This document shows, piece after piece, positions 1,800-11,438 of a stretch of DNA of 12,144 bases. This stretch comes from Candidatus Yonathbacteria bacterium (GTDB lineage Bacteria > Patescibacteriota > Minisyncoccia > Phycocordibacterales > UBA1550), in NCBI GenBank assembly GCA_003489395.1, contig DNMN01000044.1:1696-13839 (forward strand), in the 5' to 3' direction. Below the pieces are notes generated by a model. It did not search any database. It was given only the letters and a program-made list of their open reading frames with translations, and was not told the DNA's origin. The position numbers were made by a program, and so were the translations under genes. The stretch's first letter is position 1. The number at the start of each line of letters is the position of its first letter.

Positions 1800-2396
1800 T
1801 TACTTACGTTTGCGCAGGCTCTTTTGAACTTGCATACGCGCGTCAGCCTCAGCAATCATAGGCATGTACTTTGTAAATCCTTCAGAAGTACTAGCGGTTG
1901 CAACTGAGGCCATTAATTTCAACTCCTCATTTTCCGAATCAAAACTGTATGATTTCAGCCCTGATTGGATTTTATCGCAGAGAAATTGAGCTTCCTCCTT
2001 CGTTGTATTCCGCGCGAGGATAAAAAATTCATCTCCACCAAACCGCGCCACCGTATCAACTTTACGTGTTACCTCCCGTAGATAATCGGCGAACTCAATA
2101 AGTATACGATCCCCCCGCAAGTGATTTCCGTCGTTTATTGCCTTAAATCCATCAAGATCTATGAAAATGATAGAGAAATTATTTGCGGCGCGATGGCCAC
2201 GATTTTTCTCATCACGATGAAGTACTGCGAAGCTATGTTCAAGGTCCTCATACACTTTCTTTTTACTTGCGAGCCCTGTGAGAGGATCTGTCCCCAAAGC
2301 TTCACGTAGTTGATTTTCTAACTCCTGAATGCTGTGTTCAAGAGCTTTGATTTTCACACGGCAATGAATACATGGGTCCTGCTGAAGTTTGTTCAT
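1800..2396 (-). CDS. GGDEF-domain protein, probable soluble diguanylate cyclase
   Basis: A 198-aa protein whose N-terminal cap contains CIHC (C9, C12) and a short helical region (about 13-35). A complete GGDEF domain follows, with the entry motif DPLTGL, metal-site FIDLDGFK (D80) and signature RFGGDEF (GGDEF at 120-124). RKVD (111-114) lies exactly five residues before GGDEF, which is the RxxD inhibitory I-site arrangement. Such enzymes make cyclic di-GMP from two GTP, and an intact signature argues for activity. The usual NDxxGHxxGD segment reads NDGNHLRGD, one residue shorter. There is no membrane segment or recognised sensor domain; CxxC might bind a metal or act in redox (inference). Start ATG 2394-2396 is fixed by AGGAGG (2402-2407) five bases upstream. 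It is a monocistronic gene with its own promoter and terminator. Confidence 0.92.
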   Translation of the reverse strand: MNKLQQDPCIHCRVKIKALEHSIQELENQLREALGTDPLTGLASKKKVYEDLEHSFAVLHRDEKNRGHRAANNFSIIFIDLDGFKAINDGNHLRGDRILIEFADYLREVTRKVDTVARFGGDEFFILARNTTKEEAQFLCDKIQSGLKSYSFDSENEELKLMASVATASTSEGFTKYMPMIAEADARMQVQKSLRKRK

Positions 2397-2982: not shown

Positions 2983-4218
2983 TTATTTAATCTTTCCTCT
3001 AAGTTGCCTATGGAAGCCTATCGCGAAACGGTGGGCTTCGCTGTTTGCGAGAAGGATTTGTCGGTCGCGGTTCCGAATTAGCAAATTCGCGTCTTGGGCG
3101 GGAATTAATCTGCCGCCAATGAAGCCTTTTGGTTTATGGTGCTCATCCTTCACTACACCTACGACGGGGATTTGAATCCCCCATTCTTTTAGCGCTTTTT
3201 CCGCGGTGTTTACCTGGGCCTTCCCACCATCCACCACAATTAATTTTGGCATTGGCCACTCGGTGTGGTTAAACCGACGCTCAAGAATCTCGCGAAGAGA
3301 CGCATTGTCATCATTCGTGCTTGTTTTAATTTTGAATTTTCTATAGTCGCTCTTTTTTGGCTCGTTGTCTTCCAGGACAACCATTACGCCGACAACATTT
3401 GTTCCAGAAATATGCGCAACGTCGTAAGCCTCAATACGAAAACCCCCTTCGCCGAGGCGAGGCCTATGGGAAGCTTTGATTAGTGCAACATCTTGGATGT
3501 GATTAAGCGCAAAAATCATTCTTTTGATGCGCCCAGCTTCCTCAAATTTTAAGTTTTTCGCATAGGTTTTCATCTCACGAGTAAGTCCGCTTACCAGAGT
3601 TTTTTTCTTGCCTTCAAAAAACATTTTTATGCGACGAATTGTTTTTGCATATTCAGTTTTTGATACAGTGCCAGCGCATACTCCAGGGCAAAGTCCAATC
3701 TGCGCATTGAAGCAGGGCTTGCCAGAGTTTGGTTTGCATTTGTCTCTAAAAGGAAAAATTTTACGAACGATAGCGAGCGCTTCACGCAAAACACTTCCTT
3801 GTGGAAAGGGACCAAAAGTAGTTTGTATTTGATAGTTTGTAGTTGATAGTAAAGTTTCGAGTTCGCGACCACGGACGACAAGCACGCGCGGAAAATCCTC
3901 TTTTGTAATGACCACATAATTAAAACTTTTGTTGTCTTTTTCTTTTGTGTTGTAAACAGGTTGATGTTTTTTGATGAGGTGCGCTTCTAGGATGAGAGCC
4001 TCAAGCACTGAGTCGGTTTCTATGAAGTCCACAGATTTTGCAGATTCTACCATTCCGACAAGTATCGGTCCGCGAGTCGCGATAAGGTCGCCACGGAAAT
4101 AGCTCGCTACGCGAGAACGGAGCGATGTCGCCTTTCCAATGTACAATACCGCTCGTCCGCTACCGCGGAAGATGTATACACCTGGTTTGTCAGGGAGATT
4201 TGTGGCTAGTTTTTGCAT
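2983..4218 (-). CDS. uvrC: UvrABC system protein C, C-terminally short (no helix-hairpin-helix region)
   Basis: A 411-aa protein that makes the two incisions in nucleotide excision repair. The GIY-YIG domain (about 10-92) has PGVYIF, YIGKATSLRSRV and an E.LEALILEA segment with the metal-binding Glu. Cysteines 161, 169, 177 and 181 match the four-cysteine region reported as an Fe-S site in E. coli UvrC. A UVR motif that contacts UvrB lies at about 208-245. The RNase H-like 5' nuclease follows, with D266 (AYDVAHISG), D330 (VVDGGKAQ) and H403 (EAHRFAIGFHR), all catalytic residues present. The protein stops eight residues after that histidine, so the tandem helix-hairpin-helix DNA-binding region of the usual ~600-aa UvrC is absent. 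No room exists downstream, because yqeY converges 2 bp away. ATG 4216-4218 lacks an SD. Confidence 0.95.
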   Translation of the reverse strand: MQKLATNLPDKPGVYIFRGSGRAVLYIGKATSLRSRVASYFRGDLIATRGPILVGMVESAKSVDFIETDSVLEALILEAHLIKKHQPVYNTKEKDNKSFNYVVITKEDFPRVLVVRGRELETLLSTTNYQIQTTFGPFPQGSVLREALAIVRKIFPFRDKCKPNSGKPCFNAQIGLCPGVCAGTVSKTEYAKTIRRIKMFFEGKKKTLVSGLTREMKTYAKNLKFEEAGRIKRMIFALNHIQDVALIKASHRPRLGEGGFRIEAYDVAHISGTNVVGVMVVLEDNEPKKSDYRKFKIKTSTNDDNASLREILERRFNHTEWPMPKLIVVDGGKAQVNTAEKALKEWGIQIPVVGVVKDEHHKPKGFIGGRLIPAQDANLLIRNRDRQILLANSEAHRFAIGFHRQLRGKIK

Positions 4219-4640: not shown

Positions 4641-7211
4641 CTATTTCTTTTGAGCTCGTAGAACTTTCTTTAAATACTTTCCTGTGTGCGAAAGAGGGCT
4701 AGCGGCGATTTGCTCTGGAGTTCCGCGCGCGACTATTTGCCCACCGCCTTCACCGCCCTCGGGACCGATATCTATCACGTAGTCTGCGCTTTTGATGACA
4801 TCCATATTGTGTTCAATAAGGATGACGCTATTGCCTTTGTCCACTAGCTTTTGCAGGATTTCAATAAGCTTGCGTACATCCTCGTAGTGGAGTCCGACAG
4901 TAGGCTCGTCCAAAAGGTATATTGTTTTCTCCACATGAGGGCGATAGAGCTCGGAGGAAATTTTCACGCGTTGAGCCTCACCGCCAGAAAGTGTAGTTGC
5001 GGATTGTCCAAGCTTCAAGTATCCGAGACCTACATCGTTGAGAGTCTTTAGGCGGTCATATATTGCAGGAATGTCCTCAAAAAATTTGATAGCCTCCTCT
5101 ACTGTCATTTCAAGAACCTCATAAATATTTTTCTTTTTATACTTTATTTCAAGGGTGTCCTTTTCAAAACGCTTTCCGCGACATACATCACAAGTGACAT
5201 ATACTGTCGGCAAAAAATGCATTTCAACAGCAATCGTGCCGTTGCCCTCGCATGTCTCGCATCGGCCCCCTTTTACGTTGAATGAAAACCTCCCCGGTCC
5301 CCACCCACGAAGACGAGCCTCTGCCGTCTCCGCAAAGAGGTCGCGCATAAAAGTGAATGAGCCTGTGTATGTTGCCGGGTTTGAGCGTGGTGTGCGACCG
5401 ATAGCGGATTGATCTATGAGCACAGTGCGTGAAAGATATTCCGTGCCGGTAAAACTTTCGCAGTTAAAAATATCAGCAGTGCGGTACTTGCGCTCAAGAC
5501 GCGCCTGCAGATTTTTGTGAATTAGCTCGTACATAAAAGTAGATTTGCCAGAGCCGGACACACCAGTGATGGCGACAAGTTTTCCGAGCGGAATATCCGC
5601 ATTCATTCTTTTGATATTAAAAATTGTGCCCTCGCGAATACGTAGGTGCCCTTTGTCAGTATCGCGTCTTTTTGGAATAGGCACGGAAACATCACCACGC
5701 AAATAGTCTAGCGTGAGTGATTTATATTTTTTAGTGTTAGTGATGAGTTCGTCCAAGTCACCTGAAACTACTATTTCTCCTCCGTGCACACCCGCACCTG
5801 GGCCAATGTCCACCATATAGTCCGCGGCGAAAATAGTATCTTCGTCGTGCTCAACTACGATGATGGTATTGCCAATGTCGCGGAGCTCCTTGAGAGTTTT
5901 GATGAGGCGGTCGTTGTCGCGCTGGTGGAGGCCGATGGTAGGCTCGTCTAGCACGTACAGCGCGCCTACGAGGCGTGAACCAAGCTGTGACGCGAGGCGA
6001 ATACGCTGACCCTCTCCACCCGAGAGCGTGCCAGCGCGACGGCTGAGGGTTAGATAGTTCAAACCGACCTCCAACATAAATGAAAGACGGTTTTGAATTT
6101 CCTTTACTACGGGTACTGAAATGTCTTTGTCTCGCGCAGAGATTTTTAAAGTTGCGAAAAAATCTGATGCGTCTTGAATGGACATATTCACGAGCTCAAC
6201 AATATTTTTTCCGCTTACAAAAACATTGAGGGCCTCTTTGCGTAGACGCGCGCCATCACAGTCTGGACAATTTTCTTTTCCAAAAAAATGTTTTGTGCCG
6301 AGCCCATTACAAAGAGGACATGCGCCGTATGGAGAGTTGAATGAAAAAAGTCTTGGTTCAATTTCAGGATATGAAAAGCCGTCATTCGGACACGCAAAAC
6401 GATTGGACATAATGAAGTCCTTAATATCTGCTTTCTTGTCTGTAAATACAATTCGTACCAAACTTTGCGATTCATCTATCGCCTTTTCTACGGCCTCTCC
6501 TAAACGCTCCCTGCCTTTTTCTTTACCCTTGAAGTCAGCAAGCAAAATTTCGTCCACAAGAACATCAATCTCGTGTTTCTTTGTTTTTGAGAGTTCAATT
6601 TTCTCACGGAGATTGTGCATCACTCCATCAATGCGCACCATCAAAAATCCTTTGCTAAGAAGGTCGTAAAGAAGCTGGTAGTACTCTCCTTTGCGTCCGC
6701 GTACTAGAGGAGCAAAGATTCGAATTGATGCTGACTTCTTTCCTACCGCACCTTTCACGTCGTCCATGATGAAATTTATGATTTCTTCGGTGCCGAGACG
6801 CTTGATTTCTTGTCCGCAGATTAGACAATGCGGTTTGCCAATGCGCGCGTAAAGCACGCGAAGGTAATCGTATACTTCGGTAATGGTTGCCACGGTGGAA
6901 CGCGGGTTTGATGAGTGGGATTTCTGGTCAATGGATATGGACGGAGAAAGTCCAGTGATCTCATCCACATCCGGCTTCTGCATTTGGTTTAGGAACTGCC
7001 TTGCGTACGCGGACAAAGACTCCACATAGCGACGCTGACCTTCTGCGAAGATGGTATCAAACGCAAGCGAGGATTTTCCAGACCCGGAAAGCCCCGTAAA
7101 GACAATCATCTTTTCACGAGGCATCTCTACGCTGATATTTTTGAGATTGTGCGTGCGCGCGCCACGTACAACGATTTTGTCTAGTGCTTTCGATTTTTTG
7201 TTTTCAGCCAT
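4641..7211 (-). CDS. uvrA: UvrABC system protein A (excision repair ATPase) lacking the insertion domain
   Basis: An 856-aa protein, the damage-recognition ATPase that loads UvrB. It has two ABC modules: Walker A GLSGSGKSS (40-48) with signature LSGGEGQR (396-403) and LDEPTIGLH (421-429); Walker A GVSGSGKST (550-558) with signature LSGGEAQR (741-748) and LDEPTVGLH (767-775). The UvrB-binding region begins at HCLIC (129-132). The C-terminal zinc finger is intact (C651, C654, C674, C677). The first finger reads CPND...CPLC (C274, D277, C298, C301), with Asp in place of one Cys. Between GLGTKHFF (303-310) and CPDC (315-318) only a few residues remain where other UvrA proteins carry about 110 residues of insertion domain. 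Usual length is about 940 aa. ATG 7209-7211 is chosen over an upstream TTG extension because the promoter lies inside that extension. Confidence 0.96.
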   Translation of the reverse strand: MAENKKSKALDKIVVRGARTHNLKNISVEMPREKMIVFTGLSGSGKSSLAFDTIFAEGQRRYVESLSAYARQFLNQMQKPDVDEITGLSPSISIDQKSHSSNPRSTVATITEVYDYLRVLYARIGKPHCLICGQEIKRLGTEEIINFIMDDVKGAVGKKSASIRIFAPLVRGRKGEYYQLLYDLLSKGFLMVRIDGVMHNLREKIELSKTKKHEIDVLVDEILLADFKGKEKGRERLGEAVEKAIDESQSLVRIVFTDKKADIKDFIMSNRFACPNDGFSYPEIEPRLFSFNSPYGACPLCNGLGTKHFFGKENCPDCDGARLRKEALNVFVSGKNIVELVNMSIQDASDFFATLKISARDKDISVPVVKEIQNRLSFMLEVGLNYLTLSRRAGTLSGGEGQRIRLASQLGSRLVGALYVLDEPTIGLHQRDNDRLIKTLKELRDIGNTIIVVEHDEDTIFAADYMVDIGPGAGVHGGEIVVSGDLDELITNTKKYKSLTLDYLRGDVSVPIPKRRDTDKGHLRIREGTIFNIKRMNADIPLGKLVAITGVSGSGKSTFMYELIHKNLQARLERKYRTADIFNCESFTGTEYLSRTVLIDQSAIGRTPRSNPATYTGSFTFMRDLFAETAEARLRGWGPGRFSFNVKGGRCETCEGNGTIAVEMHFLPTVYVTCDVCRGKRFEKDTLEIKYKKKNIYEVLEMTVEEAIKFFEDIPAIYDRLKTLNDVGLGYLKLGQSATTLSGGEAQRVKISSELYRPHVEKTIYLLDEPTVGLHYEDVRKLIEILQKLVDKGNSVILIEHNMDVIKSADYVIDIGPEGGEGGGQIVARGTPEQIAASPLSHTGKYLKKVLRAQKK

Positions 7212-7227
7212 GGTAATTAAGGTGCCC

Positions 7228-7256
7228 AGTATACCAGATTTTTTGAATAATGGCAA
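7228..7256 (-). promoter_or_regulatory. Promoter of uvrA
   Basis: On the minus strand TTGCCA (7251-7256), a 17-bp spacer and TATACT (7228-7233), with an extended -10 TGG. Transcription should start about 12 nt before the ATG at 7211, with no SD in between. This placement rules out the longer TTG-initiated reading of UvrA. Confidence 0.75.
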
Positions 7257-7262
7257 TTCCTG

Positions 7263-7291
7263 TTGCTAGCGCTCTTCCTATGTGCTAGCAT
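7263..7291 (+). promoter_or_regulatory. Promoter of the first beta-barrel-like gene
   Basis: TTGCTA (7263-7268), a 17-bp spacer and TAGCAT (7286-7291) with an extended -10 TGC. The palindrome GCTAGC occurs twice, at 7265-7270 and 7284-7289, overlapping both boxes. The -35 box starts 7 bp beyond the uvrA -35 box on the other strand. The leader is about 44 nt and carries AGGGGG (7331-7336). Confidence 0.6.
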
Positions 7292-7341
7292 TTTAATCAG
7301 TACAAGAGTTTTTTCTTGAAATACAAAAAAAGGGGGTAAAA

Positions 7342-8010
7342 ATGAAACACATTCTTGTTTTTGTAATTGTTCTTTTGATGCCTTTGCTTGCCAGCGCGGA
7401 AGTAACATGGACTGGAGGAGTTGGCGCCGGCCAGATGATTGTTTTGGACGGAATAAAACAATCAAGCACTGAAAAACAGATCGCAAGCATTCCAGGAGTG
7501 ATGAGCTCCGAAAGCATAGAGGACAAAACGACCTACAAGTCGTTTTCACTCGGACGTTGCTGGAATGAAAATTTTTGCGTAGAGGGAGCGTACTTATGGG
7601 GCGCTCACTTTGGCACAAATCTCGCGATAAACAATGTCGGTGTAGGCGTGGTCAATGTAGGCGGTTCCCAAATTGATTTTGGTACTCTGCCTGCAAATCT
7701 AACTATGCGACGCGAGGCCGATGTTTCTGCGGCACAGCTGTCGGCTCTCTGGAAAGTTCCTGTGAGCGATTATGTTGATGTTTTTGGCAGAGTAGGTCTC
7801 TATGACTACAATGTGAAAACAACTGCCAAAATATTGCTTCCAGGTACATCAATCTTCCTCGCAGAGGAAAGCGAGGACAGAGGAACTGTGCCAATGGCAA
7901 GCATTGGCTTTGATGCGAACTTTTTGAAAAAGCTGACCATCCGTGTAGAAGGACAAAAAACCGGAGTGGTAAGCATCTTTTCAGTTTTGTTTGTCTACAA
8001 GATCAAGTAG
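7342..8010 (+). CDS. Secreted beta-barrel-like (OmpA/opacity-type) protein, paralogue 1
   Basis: A 222-aa protein with a clear Sec signal peptide (MKHILVFVIVLLMPLLASA, cleavage likely after residue 19). The rest alternates polar and hydrophobic residues with many glycines and no long hydrophobic helix, as in small outer-membrane barrels. It has a GGVGAG opening strand, an FCVEGAYLWG strand, DYVDVFGRVGLYDY (143-156) and a last strand VSIFSVLFVYKIK at the C-terminus. VSAAQLS..WK.PVSDYV.VFGRVG (128-152) matches the same residues in the next gene. Cys73 and Cys79 could form a disulfide. AGGGGG five bases before the ATG fixes the start. It has its own promoter and terminator. The fold is inferred from sequence pattern, and the role is unknown. 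Confidence 0.82.
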   Translation: MKHILVFVIVLLMPLLASAEVTWTGGVGAGQMIVLDGIKQSSTEKQIASIPGVMSSESIEDKTTYKSFSLGRCWNENFCVEGAYLWGAHFGTNLAINNVGVGVVNVGGSQIDFGTLPANLTMRREADVSAAQLSALWKVPVSDYVDVFGRVGLYDYNVKTTAKILLPGTSIFLAEESEDRGTVPMASIGFDANFLKKLTIRVEGQKTGVVSIFSVLFVYKIK

Positions 8011-8022
8011 GCTCTACAAAAC

Positions 8023-8061
8023 AATAGCGGTAACGATTTTTGCAATCGTTACCGCTATTTT
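8023..8061 (+). terminator. Intrinsic terminator after the first beta-barrel-like gene
   Basis: A 16-bp perfect stem (8023-8038 with 8044-8059) closes a TTTGC loop and is followed by TTTTCTT on the plus strand. On the minus strand the stem is followed by TTGTTTTG, so it may also stop antisense transcription arriving from uvrB. Confidence 0.85.
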
Positions 8062-8081
8062 CTTGCCTATTTTGAGAATGC

Positions 8082-8110
8082 TTGACTTTTTAGCCCCAAT
8101 ATGCTATTAT
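8082..8110 (+). promoter_or_regulatory. Strong promoter of the second beta-barrel-like gene
   Basis: TTGACT (8082-8087), a 17-bp spacer and TATTAT (8105-8110) with an extended -10 TGC. The expected leader is about 64 nt and begins shortly before a stable hairpin. Confidence 0.8.
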
Positions 8111-8127
8111 TTTAAAAGTAACAAAGT

Positions 8128-8151
8128 CCCCTATTATGTAGGTAATAGGGG
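8128..8151 (+). promoter_or_regulatory. 5' UTR stem-loop upstream of the second beta-barrel-like gene
   Basis: CCCCTATTA (8128-8136) pairs perfectly with TAATAGGGG (8143-8151) around the loop TGTAGG, about 11 nt into the predicted leader. There is no T-run, so it is not a terminator. It lies 18 nt before the SD AAGGAGGA (8169-8176) and does not cover it, which fits a stability element rather than an SD-blocking switch (inference). Confidence 0.6.
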
Positions 8152-8180
8152 TTTATCGTTGTCAAAAAAAGGAGGAGTAG

Positions 8181-8870
8181 ATGAAAAAGTATCTCGTTGC
8201 ACTGATGTTTTTTTGTGGCCTATTTTCGCAAGTAGCGCAGGCAGACGACGAAGCAAGTCGCTGGTATGTGGGAGCTGGGGTTGCCGAACTGGTGTCCCCT
8301 GGCGGTATCCCTATGTCACCGCAGGAGATGGGATTTCTGGTTAACCAGACCTACTGGAATAGCAGTAGAACTGTGGAAAACAGGCGACTTGCTAATGAGG
8401 TCACGGTGGGTTATCAGATGAATGGCACCTTTGCGGTTGAGCTCGGATATATCCGTGGCGACAGCGGTGCCAAGGCGACAACCACGGCAACTATGCCAAC
8501 GTTTGACTGGAATACTGGCTTGCCAATTTCTGTCCCCATCACAATCGCGCAAAAAGAAACTCTTTCTGCGTGGCAACTGTCGTTCGTAGGCCAAAAGCCG
8601 TTGAATGACTATGTGTCAGTAATGGCGCGCCTCGGAATGATGAGGGCGCATACTGAATGGGAACAGCGCCAGACGTACACATGGCCGGCAAGTTGGAACG
8701 GCGACGGATCTTCACAAATCTGGACACGTTCATCAAACAAAGAAACGTTGCTCTACGGTCTCGGCTTCACTGCAAAGGTCGCAAACAACACGGACATTCG
8801 CGTGGAATGGAAAAAGTCCAGCGCGATGCAAACCGGTGTTTCATCGGCAGTTCTCCTTTTTCAACTTTAA
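8181..8870 (+). CDS. Secreted beta-barrel-like (OmpA/opacity-type) protein, paralogue 2
   Basis: A 229-aa protein with a Sec signal peptide (cleavage likely after AQA, residue 21) and no lipobox. The mature part looks like an eight-stranded small barrel: RWYVGAGVAEL (27-37), NEVTVGYQ / TFAVELGYIRGD (72-94), LSAWQLSF (128-135), DYVSVMARLGMM (143-154), TLLYGLGFTAKV / TDIRVEWKK (189-212) and a closing strand GVSSAVLLFQL at the C-terminus. LSAWQLS lies at the same residue numbers as VSAAQLS in the upstream gene, and P[VL][SN]DYV.V..R[VL]G[LM] is shared, so the two are tandem paralogues. ATG 8181 is fixed by AAGGAGGA four bases upstream. Its promoter, leader hairpin and terminator are separate from those of the first copy. 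Surface location is inferred; the ligand is unknown. Confidence 0.84.
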   Translation: MKKYLVALMFFCGLFSQVAQADDEASRWYVGAGVAELVSPGGIPMSPQEMGFLVNQTYWNSSRTVENRRLANEVTVGYQMNGTFAVELGYIRGDSGAKATTTATMPTFDWNTGLPISVPITIAQKETLSAWQLSFVGQKPLNDYVSVMARLGMMRAHTEWEQRQTYTWPASWNGDGSSQIWTRSSNKETLLYGLGFTAKVANNTDIRVEWKKSSAMQTGVSSAVLLFQL

Positions 8871-8888
8871 CCAAACCGCTATGCGGTG

Positions 8889-8924
8889 CATCCTCAGGCT
8901 TAGGCTTGAGGATGTTTTTATTTT
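8889..8924 (+). terminator. Intrinsic terminator after the second beta-barrel-like gene
   Basis: An 11-bp stem with one G-T pair (8889-8899 with 8904-8914), loop TTAG, then TTTTTATTTT. The T-run overlaps the uvrB stop codon (8918-8920). On the minus strand no T-run follows, so it serves the plus strand only. A small ACCGC/GCGGT hairpin lies just upstream at 8874-8886. Confidence 0.85.
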
Positions 8925-11005
8925 AGTAGTTGCTCTTTAAGCATCACGATTTCATCTCGCAAAATCGCCGCGGTTTCGAAATCTAGCTCCTTCACCGCTT
9001 TGGACATTTCTTTTTCTTTTAATTTCAATAGTTTTTGCGGGTCTTTTATAAATATCTGCGCATCTATGTCTAGGTTAATTCGCACTGCTTTCATATGGTC
9101 TGTTTCAAGATGCTCGGTGATGTCCTTGATTTGTTTGATGATAGTTTTTGGGGTTATGCCGTGCTCTTTGTTGTAAGCAACCTGAATAGCGCGACGGCGA
9201 CTTGTTTCGGAAACCGCGCGTTCAATAGAACCAGTAATTTTTTCTGCATAAAGAATCACACGCCCCTCCACGTTGCGCGCAGCGCGACCAATAATCTGAA
9301 TGAGCGATGTTTCTGAACGAAGAAAACCCTCTTTGTCAGCATCAAGGATGCCAATGAGCGTTACTTCTGGCAGGTCCAGGCCTTCACGGAGGAGGTTCAC
9401 ACCCACGAGGCAGTCAAACGTTCCCTTGCGAAAGGCCGTTAGGATTTGGATACGTTCTAGTGTTTTGATGTCGCTATGCACATACTCAGCCTTGATTCCC
9501 TCCCCTTTTAAATATTCTGAAAGGTCCTCAGCCATTTTTTTAGTAAGGGTTGTTGCAATCACGCGTCCACCTTTTGCAACCGCAATTTTTGTTTCAGCGA
9601 TGAGGTCTTGAATCTGACCTGGGTATGCGCCCTTTGAACGGTCCTCAAGTTCCCCTCTCGTGTCTTTGCTTTTCTTAAAACTTGGGCCTGTGGGGAAATT
9701 TGGACGCGCAAGAATGGGGCGAATAGAAATCTCTGGGTCAATGAGTCCTGTTGGGCGAATTACTTGCTCCACAACCTGCGCGCTGTTTTCTTTTTCATAT
9801 ACAGATGGTGTGGCAGAAGTAAAAACCATTTGTCCTACGCGCTCGTGAAATTCTTCTGAACGAAGCGGGCGGTTGTCCATTGCAGACGGCAAGCGAAAGC
9901 CGAACTCCACAAGAGTTTTTTTACGCGATTGGTCGCCTGCGTACATTCCGCCTATTTGTGGAATGGTCACATGCGATTCGTCTATGATAGTGAGAAAGTC
10001 AGGCTTTCCATCTTTTGTCCTAGGGAAGTACGAAAGAAGTGTGTCAGGGGCAGAACCAGCGCTACGCCCAGACATATGACGTGAATAGTTTTCAATGCCA
10101 CTACAGTAGCCAACTTCGCGAATCATAGCGAGGTCGTATGTGGTGCGACGCTTTAATCTTTCAGCCTCAAGTAGCTTCCCTTCTTTCTCAAATTTCTTTA
10201 GTTGAGAATCAAGCTCTTTTTTAATGACTTTTATTGCGCGCGATTTTTCAGCTTCATTGGTTATGAAGTGTTTTGCGGGAAAAATAAAAATTGATTCAGG
10301 AGTGTCTACGATTTTTTGTGATACTGGGTCAACTTTGTTGATTGACTCAATGCCTTTTGTGTCCATTGTGATACTCCACACTATCTTTTCTGATACAGGC
10401 ATTATTTCTATGAGAGCGCCGATAGAGCGGAATGTTCCGGGAGTAAGGTCGGCATTGGTGCGTGTGAAGTGAATGTTGATGAGTTTCTGCATAAGCGTCT
10501 TGCGGTCAATTTTTTGCCCTGAACTCAATTTCATATTTTCTTTTTCATATTCAGCGGGTGAACCCAAACCGTAAATACACGAAACAGACGCAACAATAAT
10601 CACATCTTTGCGTGTAAGAAGCGCCTGCGTGGATGCGTGGCGGAGACGGTCAATTTCTTCGTTAATTTGCGCGTCCTTTTCTATATATGTGTCCGTCGTC
10701 GGCATGTACGCCTCTGGTTGATAGTAGTCGTAGTACGATACGAAATAGTGCACCGCATTGTCTGGGAAAAATTCTTTGTATTCCTGCGCGAGCTGTGCGG
10801 CGAGGGTTTTGTTATGAGCGATGACGAGCGTCGGTTTGCCGACAGACGCAATGACATTCGCCATCGTGAATGTTTTACCTGAGCCGGTAACACCAAGCAA
10901 AGTCTGCGCGCACATCCCTTTTTTAAGTCCAACCAAAAGCTCCTTGATTGCTTTGGGTTGGTCGCCTGCTGGAGGCCAATCTGATTTTATGCTAAATGTA
11001 GACAT
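8918..11005 (-). CDS. uvrB: UvrABC system protein B, with an extra segment before domain 3
   Basis: A 695-aa protein, the helicase-like damage-verification subunit. Landmarks are Walker A GVTGSGKTFT (38-47), the tyrosine-rich beta-hairpin (YYDYYQPEAY, 91-100, through RHASTQALL at about 122-130), DESH (342-345), SAT (397-399), RVIATTLTKKMAEDL in domain 3, motif VI QIIGRAARN (570-578) and a C-terminal UVR motif (about 657-692) that binds UvrC. Between IRP (428-430) and QIQDLI (464-469) there are about 33 residues, where other UvrB proteins have about four; this segment is rich in Pro, Lys and Gly. E. coli UvrB is 673 aa. The ATG at 11003-11005 has no SD, and the promoter sits 15 bp upstream. 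No minus-strand terminator is seen after the stop. Confidence 0.97.
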   Translation of the reverse strand: MSTFSIKSDWPPAGDQPKAIKELLVGLKKGMCAQTLLGVTGSGKTFTMANVIASVGKPTLVIAHNKTLAAQLAQEYKEFFPDNAVHYFVSYYDYYQPEAYMPTTDTYIEKDAQINEEIDRLRHASTQALLTRKDVIIVASVSCIYGLGSPAEYEKENMKLSSGQKIDRKTLMQKLINIHFTRTNADLTPGTFRSIGALIEIMPVSEKIVWSITMDTKGIESINKVDPVSQKIVDTPESIFIFPAKHFITNEAEKSRAIKVIKKELDSQLKKFEKEGKLLEAERLKRRTTYDLAMIREVGYCSGIENYSRHMSGRSAGSAPDTLLSYFPRTKDGKPDFLTIIDESHVTIPQIGGMYAGDQSRKKTLVEFGFRLPSAMDNRPLRSEEFHERVGQMVFTSATPSVYEKENSAQVVEQVIRPTGLIDPEISIRPILARPNFPTGPSFKKSKDTRGELEDRSKGAYPGQIQDLIAETKIAVAKGGRVIATTLTKKMAEDLSEYLKGEGIKAEYVHSDIKTLERIQILTAFRKGTFDCLVGVNLLREGLDLPEVTLIGILDADKEGFLRSETSLIQIIGRAARNVEGRVILYAEKITGSIERAVSETSRRRAIQVAYNKEHGITPKTIIKQIKDITEHLETDHMKAVRINLDIDAQIFIKDPQKLLKLKEKEMSKAVKELDFETAAILRDEIVMLKEQLLK

Positions 11006-11087: not shown

Positions 11088-11438
11088 ATGACAAAGAAGA
11101 ACATCAGAGTTATGGCCTGCCATGACAAGGTATGGACATTTGAAGAACTACATCGTCGTATTGCCGGTGTAGTTGAAAATCCTGGGCCGGAAGAGCAGAA
11201 ATTTGTTGCTTGGCTCAAACAGGAGATTGAACAAGGACTGAAATATTTTCATGTCTCACTAAAGAGTACGACGCAGTATTTTTTTGACAAAATGGCAGAA
11301 CGGGCAGAAGGAACTCCCGCTGTCCCGCCTCCACCTGTTGTTGGAGAGGAAAGAGAAGCTTTGTTTGCTGAGCTGAACAAAATAAACGAGTTGGTTGCTA
11401 CTGGGCAATACGTCAACGTCACTGACAAAGTTTTATAA
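11088..11438 (+). CDS. Hypothetical protein, 116 aa
   Basis: I do not recognise this protein. It begins MTKKNIRVMACHDKVWTFEE. It looks soluble and largely helical up to about residue 75, then has a proline-rich hinge (PAVPPPPVV, about 77-85) and a short acidic C-terminal helix (EEREALFAELNKINELV). There is no signal peptide or membrane segment. The ATG is supported by AAAGGAG (11072-11078) about nine bases upstream. The leader shares GAGTAGTTC just before the start with the orphan gene at 4283. It is monocistronic, divergent from uvrB and convergent with tgt, with a strong terminator of its own, so it is very probably a real gene. Confidence 0.75.
   Translation: MTKKNIRVMACHDKVWTFEELHRRIAGVVENPGPEEQKFVAWLKQEIEQGLKYFHVSLKSTTQYFFDKMAERAEGTPAVPPPPVVGEEREALFAELNKINELVATGQYVNVTDKVL

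What the first reader, a model, noticed from the sequence alone, without database searches (positions are those of the whole stretch)
7342..8870. Tandem pair of signal-peptide-bearing beta-barrel-like proteins in a CPR-type genome
Both products have Sec signal peptides, glycine-rich alternating strands, no helical membrane segment and a closing hydrophobic C-terminal strand. They share a block at identical residue positions (128-152), [VL]SA.QLS....K.P[VL][SN]DYV.V..R[VL]G[LM]. This is the OmpA/opacity-like small barrel pattern. CPR bacteria are generally thought to lack a classical lipopolysaccharide outer membrane, so such proteins raise the question of where they sit. Options are an unrecognised outer layer, insertion into a host membrane, or a secreted barrel used in attachment. 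The duplication with separate promoters suggests separate control, perhaps for variation at the surface.
Basis: partly seen in the sequence, partly recalled or inferred. Interest (0 to 1): 0.7.

Follow-up and report, generated by a model that had tools for sequence, protein, structure and literature searches.

The report
OmpA-like barrels in outer-membrane-less bacteria
A tiny parasite-like bacterium thought to have no outer membrane carries two genes for outer-membrane barrel proteins of the OmpA kind, although none of the assembly genes searched for in its genome was found, which raises the question of whose membrane they sit in.

The parts
7342..8010 (+). ORF1, 222 aa OmpA-type eight-stranded beta-barrel with Sec signal peptide
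8181..8870 (+). ORF2, 229 aa OmpA-type eight-stranded beta-barrel with Sec signal peptide
7342..7398 (+). ORF1 signal peptide, residues 1-19, likely cleavage after ASA
   Evidence: hydrophobic core (max 15-residue KD 2.98) and AxA motif read by eye; no dedicated predictor run
8181..8243 (+). ORF2 signal peptide, residues 1-21, likely cleavage after AQA
   Evidence: hydrophobic core (2.10) and AxA motif read by eye; no dedicated predictor run
8023..8059 (.). 16-bp-stem hairpin between ORF1 and ORF2, terminator-like
   Evidence: scored on the - strand only; T-rich on the + side as well, by eye
8082..8110 (+). sigma-70-like promoter TTGACT-17-TATTAT with TG before ORF2
   Evidence: consensus match only
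8128..8151 (+). 10-bp-stem hairpin in the presumed leader of ORF2
   Evidence: no Rfam family at gathering score
8888..8915 (+). terminator-like hairpin after ORF2, in the gap before convergent uvrB
4641..7256 (-). uvrA, left neighbour of the slot
8918..11005 (-). uvrB, right neighbour of the slot
   Evidence: found in 16 of 16 genomes of the genus

Best explanation
Shown by computation: the two genes encode single-domain, eight-stranded OmpA-type barrels with signal peptides. They are a paralogous pair kept in a gene-turnover slot between uvrB and uvrA of Ca. Yonathbacteria, in a lineage with no detectable BamA, TamB or LptD and no Skp over its cut-off. Inferred: the ancestors of these barrel genes came from Gram-negative bacteria, more than once across the order. 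The proteins leave the cell by Sec and act at the contact with a Gram-negative partner. Most likely they partition into, or are taken up by, the partner's outer membrane (small OmpA-type barrels can fold into bilayers unaided, which I recall and did not test). There the long loops would serve attachment or a small pore.
Against: ORF1 and ORF2 themselves end in K and L, not in an aromatic residue. The genes are patchy: 6 of 16 in the genus, one of these a remnant and one short, so they are dispensable. No host is known to me for this lineage and nothing shows transfer to a host membrane. ORF1 relatives do not show excess variation in the outward loops (3371/10000 permutations). Direct BAM-independent insertion in vivo would be unusual.
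Confidence: 0.42

Rival explanations
1. The barrels sit in the bacterium's own unrecognised outer lipid layer, inserted spontaneously or by an unknown, non-homologous assembly protein.
For: Barrel matches with mostly aromatic C-termini occur in 14 of 179 genera of the order. A passage of PMC4508563 says that an outer membrane was reported for OD1 organisms (Gong et al. 2014, not read).
Against: No Omp85, TamB or LptD in the genomes searched. Passages of PMC6744442, PMC7906910 and PMC12102498 speak against an outer membrane in CPR, and PMC7143001 against one in a single Microgenomates genome. If such a layer were general in the order, barrels in only 18 of 397 genomes would be surprising.
Confidence: 0.17
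2. The barrels are displayed on the CPR cell surface or released, as adhesins or lipid-binding proteins, without being integrated in any outer membrane.
For: Signal peptides, paralogy, and outward loops of ORF2 relatives more variable than the turns (0.75 against 0.32 bits, 1/10000 permutations, 7 rows).
Against: OmpA-type barrels have a lipid-facing hydrophobic belt, supported here by strand alternation; I recognised no wall or S-layer anchor in the two proteins, whose Pfam matches are the two barrel families only.
Confidence: 0.25
3. They are captured or decaying foreign genes with little function, kept only because the uvrB-uvrA gap tolerates insertions.
For: Patchy presence; a remnant in G008 and a short copy in G009; other ORFs in the same gap in several genomes.
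Against: Open frames with conserved family across homologues of 46-99% identity (ORF1, 16 proteins) and 50-99% (ORF2, 6 proteins); both paralogue clades are present in G000 and G002. No dN/dS was computed.
Confidence: 0.12
4. Contig chimera or contamination from a Gram-negative bacterium.
For: OmpA barrels are typical of Gram-negative bacteria; ORF2 GC3 is 0.543 against 0.42-0.47 in uvrA, uvrB and uvrC.
Against: Conserved slot in independent assemblies, including a named Ca. Yonathbacteria contig of 95.9 kb and a 112.7-kb contig in G013; ORF1 GC3 0.453 like uvrA 0.468; the two ORF1 homologues that name an organism, of 16, are both CPR.
Confidence: 0.01

Closest known systems
OmpA N-terminal transmembrane domain (PF01389), E. 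coli and Klebsiella OmpA
   Same: Eight-stranded barrel, sequence and structure match, signal peptide, long first outer loop and short inner turns.
   Different: No C-terminal peptidoglycan-binding domain; found in a lineage without detectable BAM; no terminal aromatic residue in the window's two proteins.
Small opacity-like and Ail/OmpX/NspA barrels (OMP_b-brl, PF13505)
   Same: Stand-alone single-domain barrel of about 200 residues; Ail and OmpX are among the Foldseek matches.
Rhizobial porin-family proteins (relatives of the barrel in G713)
   Same: Same broad barrel class, also found in a genome of this order.
   Different: A different subfamily at another locus, pointing to separate acquisition.

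Membership tests
OmpA-type transmembrane barrel (PF01389 / PF13505) | Profile score over the curated cut-off | tested here: met
   ORF1 39.3 and 29.6 bits, ORF2 47.2 and 34.9 bits; cut-offs 21 and 28.7
OmpA-type transmembrane barrel (PF01389 / PF13505) | Eight antiparallel strands closing a barrel like OmpA | tested here: met
OmpA-type transmembrane barrel (PF01389 / PF13505) | Sec signal peptide | tested here: met
   Hydrophobic core and AxA site by eye; no dedicated predictor available
OmpA-type transmembrane barrel (PF01389 / PF13505) | C-terminal aromatic residue of the BAM signal | tested here: not met
   ORF1 ends in K, ORF2 in L; of 19 related loci read, 14 end in F, one in W and four in other residues. 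Typical of the class, not strictly defining (recalled).
OmpA-type transmembrane barrel (PF01389 / PF13505) | Residence in an outer membrane | not testable with these tools
   Needs cell fractionation or imaging
Full-length porin OmpA (NF008071) | Score over 277 bits with C-terminal OmpA domain | tested here: not met
   17.2 and 20.9 bits; PF00691 not found in any of 16 genomes searched, own genome included
Diderm envelope with BAM and Lpt | Omp85/BamA, LptD, TamB, Skp | tested here: not met
   Omp85 0/61 and 0/19, LptD 0/61 but controls ring in only 2 of 14, TamB 0/19, Skp 0/19 over cut-off, one sub-cut-off match in G729
Diderm envelope with BAM and Lpt | Second bilayer seen by imaging | not testable with these tools
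   No imaging of this lineage in the passages read

The most novel reading that the evidence does not exclude
CPR bacteria with a single membrane repeatedly capture outer-membrane barrel genes from Gram-negative bacteria and use the products on their hosts: the barrel is made and secreted by the epibiont but ends in the host's outer membrane, as a docking site or pore, perhaps folded by the host's own BAM complex.
Probability: 0.28. Interest if true: 0.92.

Novelty: new variant of a known kind. Interest (0 to 1): 0.68.

Why it matters
Outer-membrane barrels are taken as a mark of diderm cells and as dependent on BamA. Finding genuine OmpA-type barrels in several genera of a group described as lacking an outer membrane, with no detectable BamA, leaves three options, each of interest: a host-directed membrane protein, an unseen outer layer, or assembly without BamA. 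It gives genes and loci with which the CPR envelope and host-contact question can be tested.

Tried and rejected

Limits: counts with PF13505 are lower bounds, since the short G009 copy was missed by it though it passes OmpA_membrane (29.8 bits). Of the 18 genomes, five are under the cut-off (G002, G026, G624, G654, G485); the last four may not hold barrels. Phylum-wide, PF01389 matched only 3 of 379 genomes. In the genus, the gap could not be seen up to uvrA in G005 and G012. Rows dropped before the tree: I gave 5 of 16 ORF1 homologues, 2 of 6 ORF2 homologues, 4 of 5 proteins of the G040 group, and 15 of the 16 other new proteins; two of these were cut to their first 215 residues. The label 'CPR' of most rows there is inferred, as they name no organism; G003 sits on a long branch. 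Alignment A1 behind included one uncertain member (L009). Gene names beside fetched loci (tuf, ychF, proS, mreB) were read by eye from translations.

Full report
What is there. The window carries uvrC, uvrA and uvrB on the minus strand. They are paralogues (24% identity over 225 columns, E 5e-8) and share the block at residues 128-152, 12 of 25 identical. Each has a purine run like a ribosome-binding site and a hydrophobic signal peptide followed by no helical membrane segment. A strong hairpin separates them and a good promoter-like site precedes ORF2, but such consensus matches are weak evidence.

Organism. Among named genomes the closest UvrB, 82%, is from Candidatus Yonathbacteria RIFCSPLOWO2_01_FULL_47_33b; most of the next 25 rows are other Parcubacteria-group or Patescibacteria records. 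An ORF1 homologue (60%) is named Candidatus Yonathbacteria and another (46%) Candidatus Pacebacteria; the other 14 name no organism. The assembly has 639,064 bases in 62 contigs and is 91% complete. So the CPR claim holds.

Not a chimera. UvrB is found in 16 of 16 genomes of the genus. Next to uvrA, two barrels lie in G000 and G002 (in G002 the uvrB match is on another contig), one in G003 and G013, a short diverged one in G009 that still passes OmpA_membrane (29.8 bits), and in G008 a remnant whose middle is missing. The other 10 genomes gave no profile match in the fetched stretches: uvrA and uvrB abut in G004 and G010, other small ORFs fill the gap in six, and in G005 and G012 the stretch did not reach uvrA. 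The named contig carries a barrel identical to that of G003 in the same place. In many of the 19 UvrB loci of other Parcubacteria and neighbours listed, uvrB and uvrA run in the same direction with various genes or none between. The gap is a place of gene turnover and the barrels are one of its cargoes.

Distribution. OMP_b-brl matches 8 of 61 relatives and 18 of 397 genomes of the order, in 14 of 179 genera, 13 genomes over the cut-off. OmpA_membrane matches 3 of 379 genomes of the phylum. Outside the genus the loci differ: beside uvrB in G055, beside ychF in the single-contig genome G571 (one barrel over cut-off, 45 bits, and a tandem neighbour under it, 24.3 bits), beside tuf in G485, a weak match. 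Subtypes differ: G040 and G055 form one clade (100/99), and the Yonathbacteria ORF1 and ORF2 clades lie together on one side of a branch (96/91) (unrooted). The G713 barrel is about 39% identical to rhizobial porin-family proteins. I infer repeated capture from Gram-negative bacteria; the trees do not fix the number or direction of events.

No assembly genes found. Omp85 has no match in 61 of 61 relatives and in 19 of 19 genomes with a barrel match, while the same search rings in 7 of 14 known control genomes. TamB has none in 19 (controls 6 of 14), Skp passes its cut-off in none of 19 with one weaker match in G729 (controls 6 of 14), and LptD has none in 61, though its controls ring in only 2 of 14. 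SurA was not tested. Several genomes are incomplete, so single absences mean little, but the agreement is strong.

Literature. Passages read say that CPR bacteria lack TonB-ExbB-ExbD and PilQ, consistent with no outer membrane (PMC6744442); that ultrasmall groundwater cells without an outer membrane attach to cells with two lipid layers (PMC7906910); and that the CPR T4SS is of the monoderm type (PMC12102498). One passage notes that an outer membrane has been reported for OD1 (PMC4508563). PMC11809585 mentions a large exoprotein whose homologues carry an autotransporter beta-domain. Ten full-text searches listed no title about OmpA-type barrels in CPR. Only passages were read, of eight papers, so prior mention elsewhere is possible.

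How it most likely works. Shown by computation: OmpA-type barrels with signal peptides in cells without recognised barrel-assembly genes. Inferred: Sec export, folding outside the cell, action at the contact with a Gram-negative partner, most likely in its outer membrane. For this: the fold, the aromatic C-terminus in most relatives (15 of 21 barrels or candidates counted), and the imaging of attachment to Gram-negative-like cells. Against: the two window proteins lack that terminal residue, the genes are patchy, and no experiment touches location. Outer loops are more variable than turns in ORF2 relatives (7 rows) but not in ORF1 relatives (17 rows). I give the host-interface reading 0.42, with an adhesin without outer-membrane integration, an own outer layer and decay as rivals.

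Noticed in passing
window 7257-8917; L106-L130: The uvrB-uvrA gap in Ca. Yonathbacteria is a place of gene turnover: abutting genes in G004 and G010, barrels or remnants beside uvrA in six genomes, other small ORFs in others.
   Followed up: partly
L136, G000:C7:41267-41713: A third small barrel-like ORF in the same genome (149 aa, ends GLGVNF) near proS and mreB; OMP_b-brl under cut-off (25.2 bits, 26.6); in no other of 61 genomes.
   Followed up: partly
L134 (G571:C1:594000-601000): Single-contig genome of the order with two tandem signal-peptide barrel-like ORFs beside ychF, one over and one under the OMP_b-brl cut-off.
   Followed up: partly
L131 (G055:C11) 934-2094: Beside the barrel of G055 lies a 386-residue frame with a signal-peptide-like start and many Asn, Gln and Ala residues; function unknown.
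   Followed up: no
window 1800-2396: A 198-aa stand-alone GGDEF protein in a 639-kb CPR genome (92.6 bits).
   Followed up: no
window 8128-8151: A 10-bp-stem hairpin between the promoter-like site and the start of ORF2; no Rfam match.
   Followed up: no
window 11088-11438: A 116-aa ORF between uvrB and tgt without any Pfam match.
   Followed up: no
L107 (G008) 3652-3957: Remnant of an ORF1-type gene with its middle missing (profile 75.5 bits), showing that the gene can be lost.
   Followed up: yes
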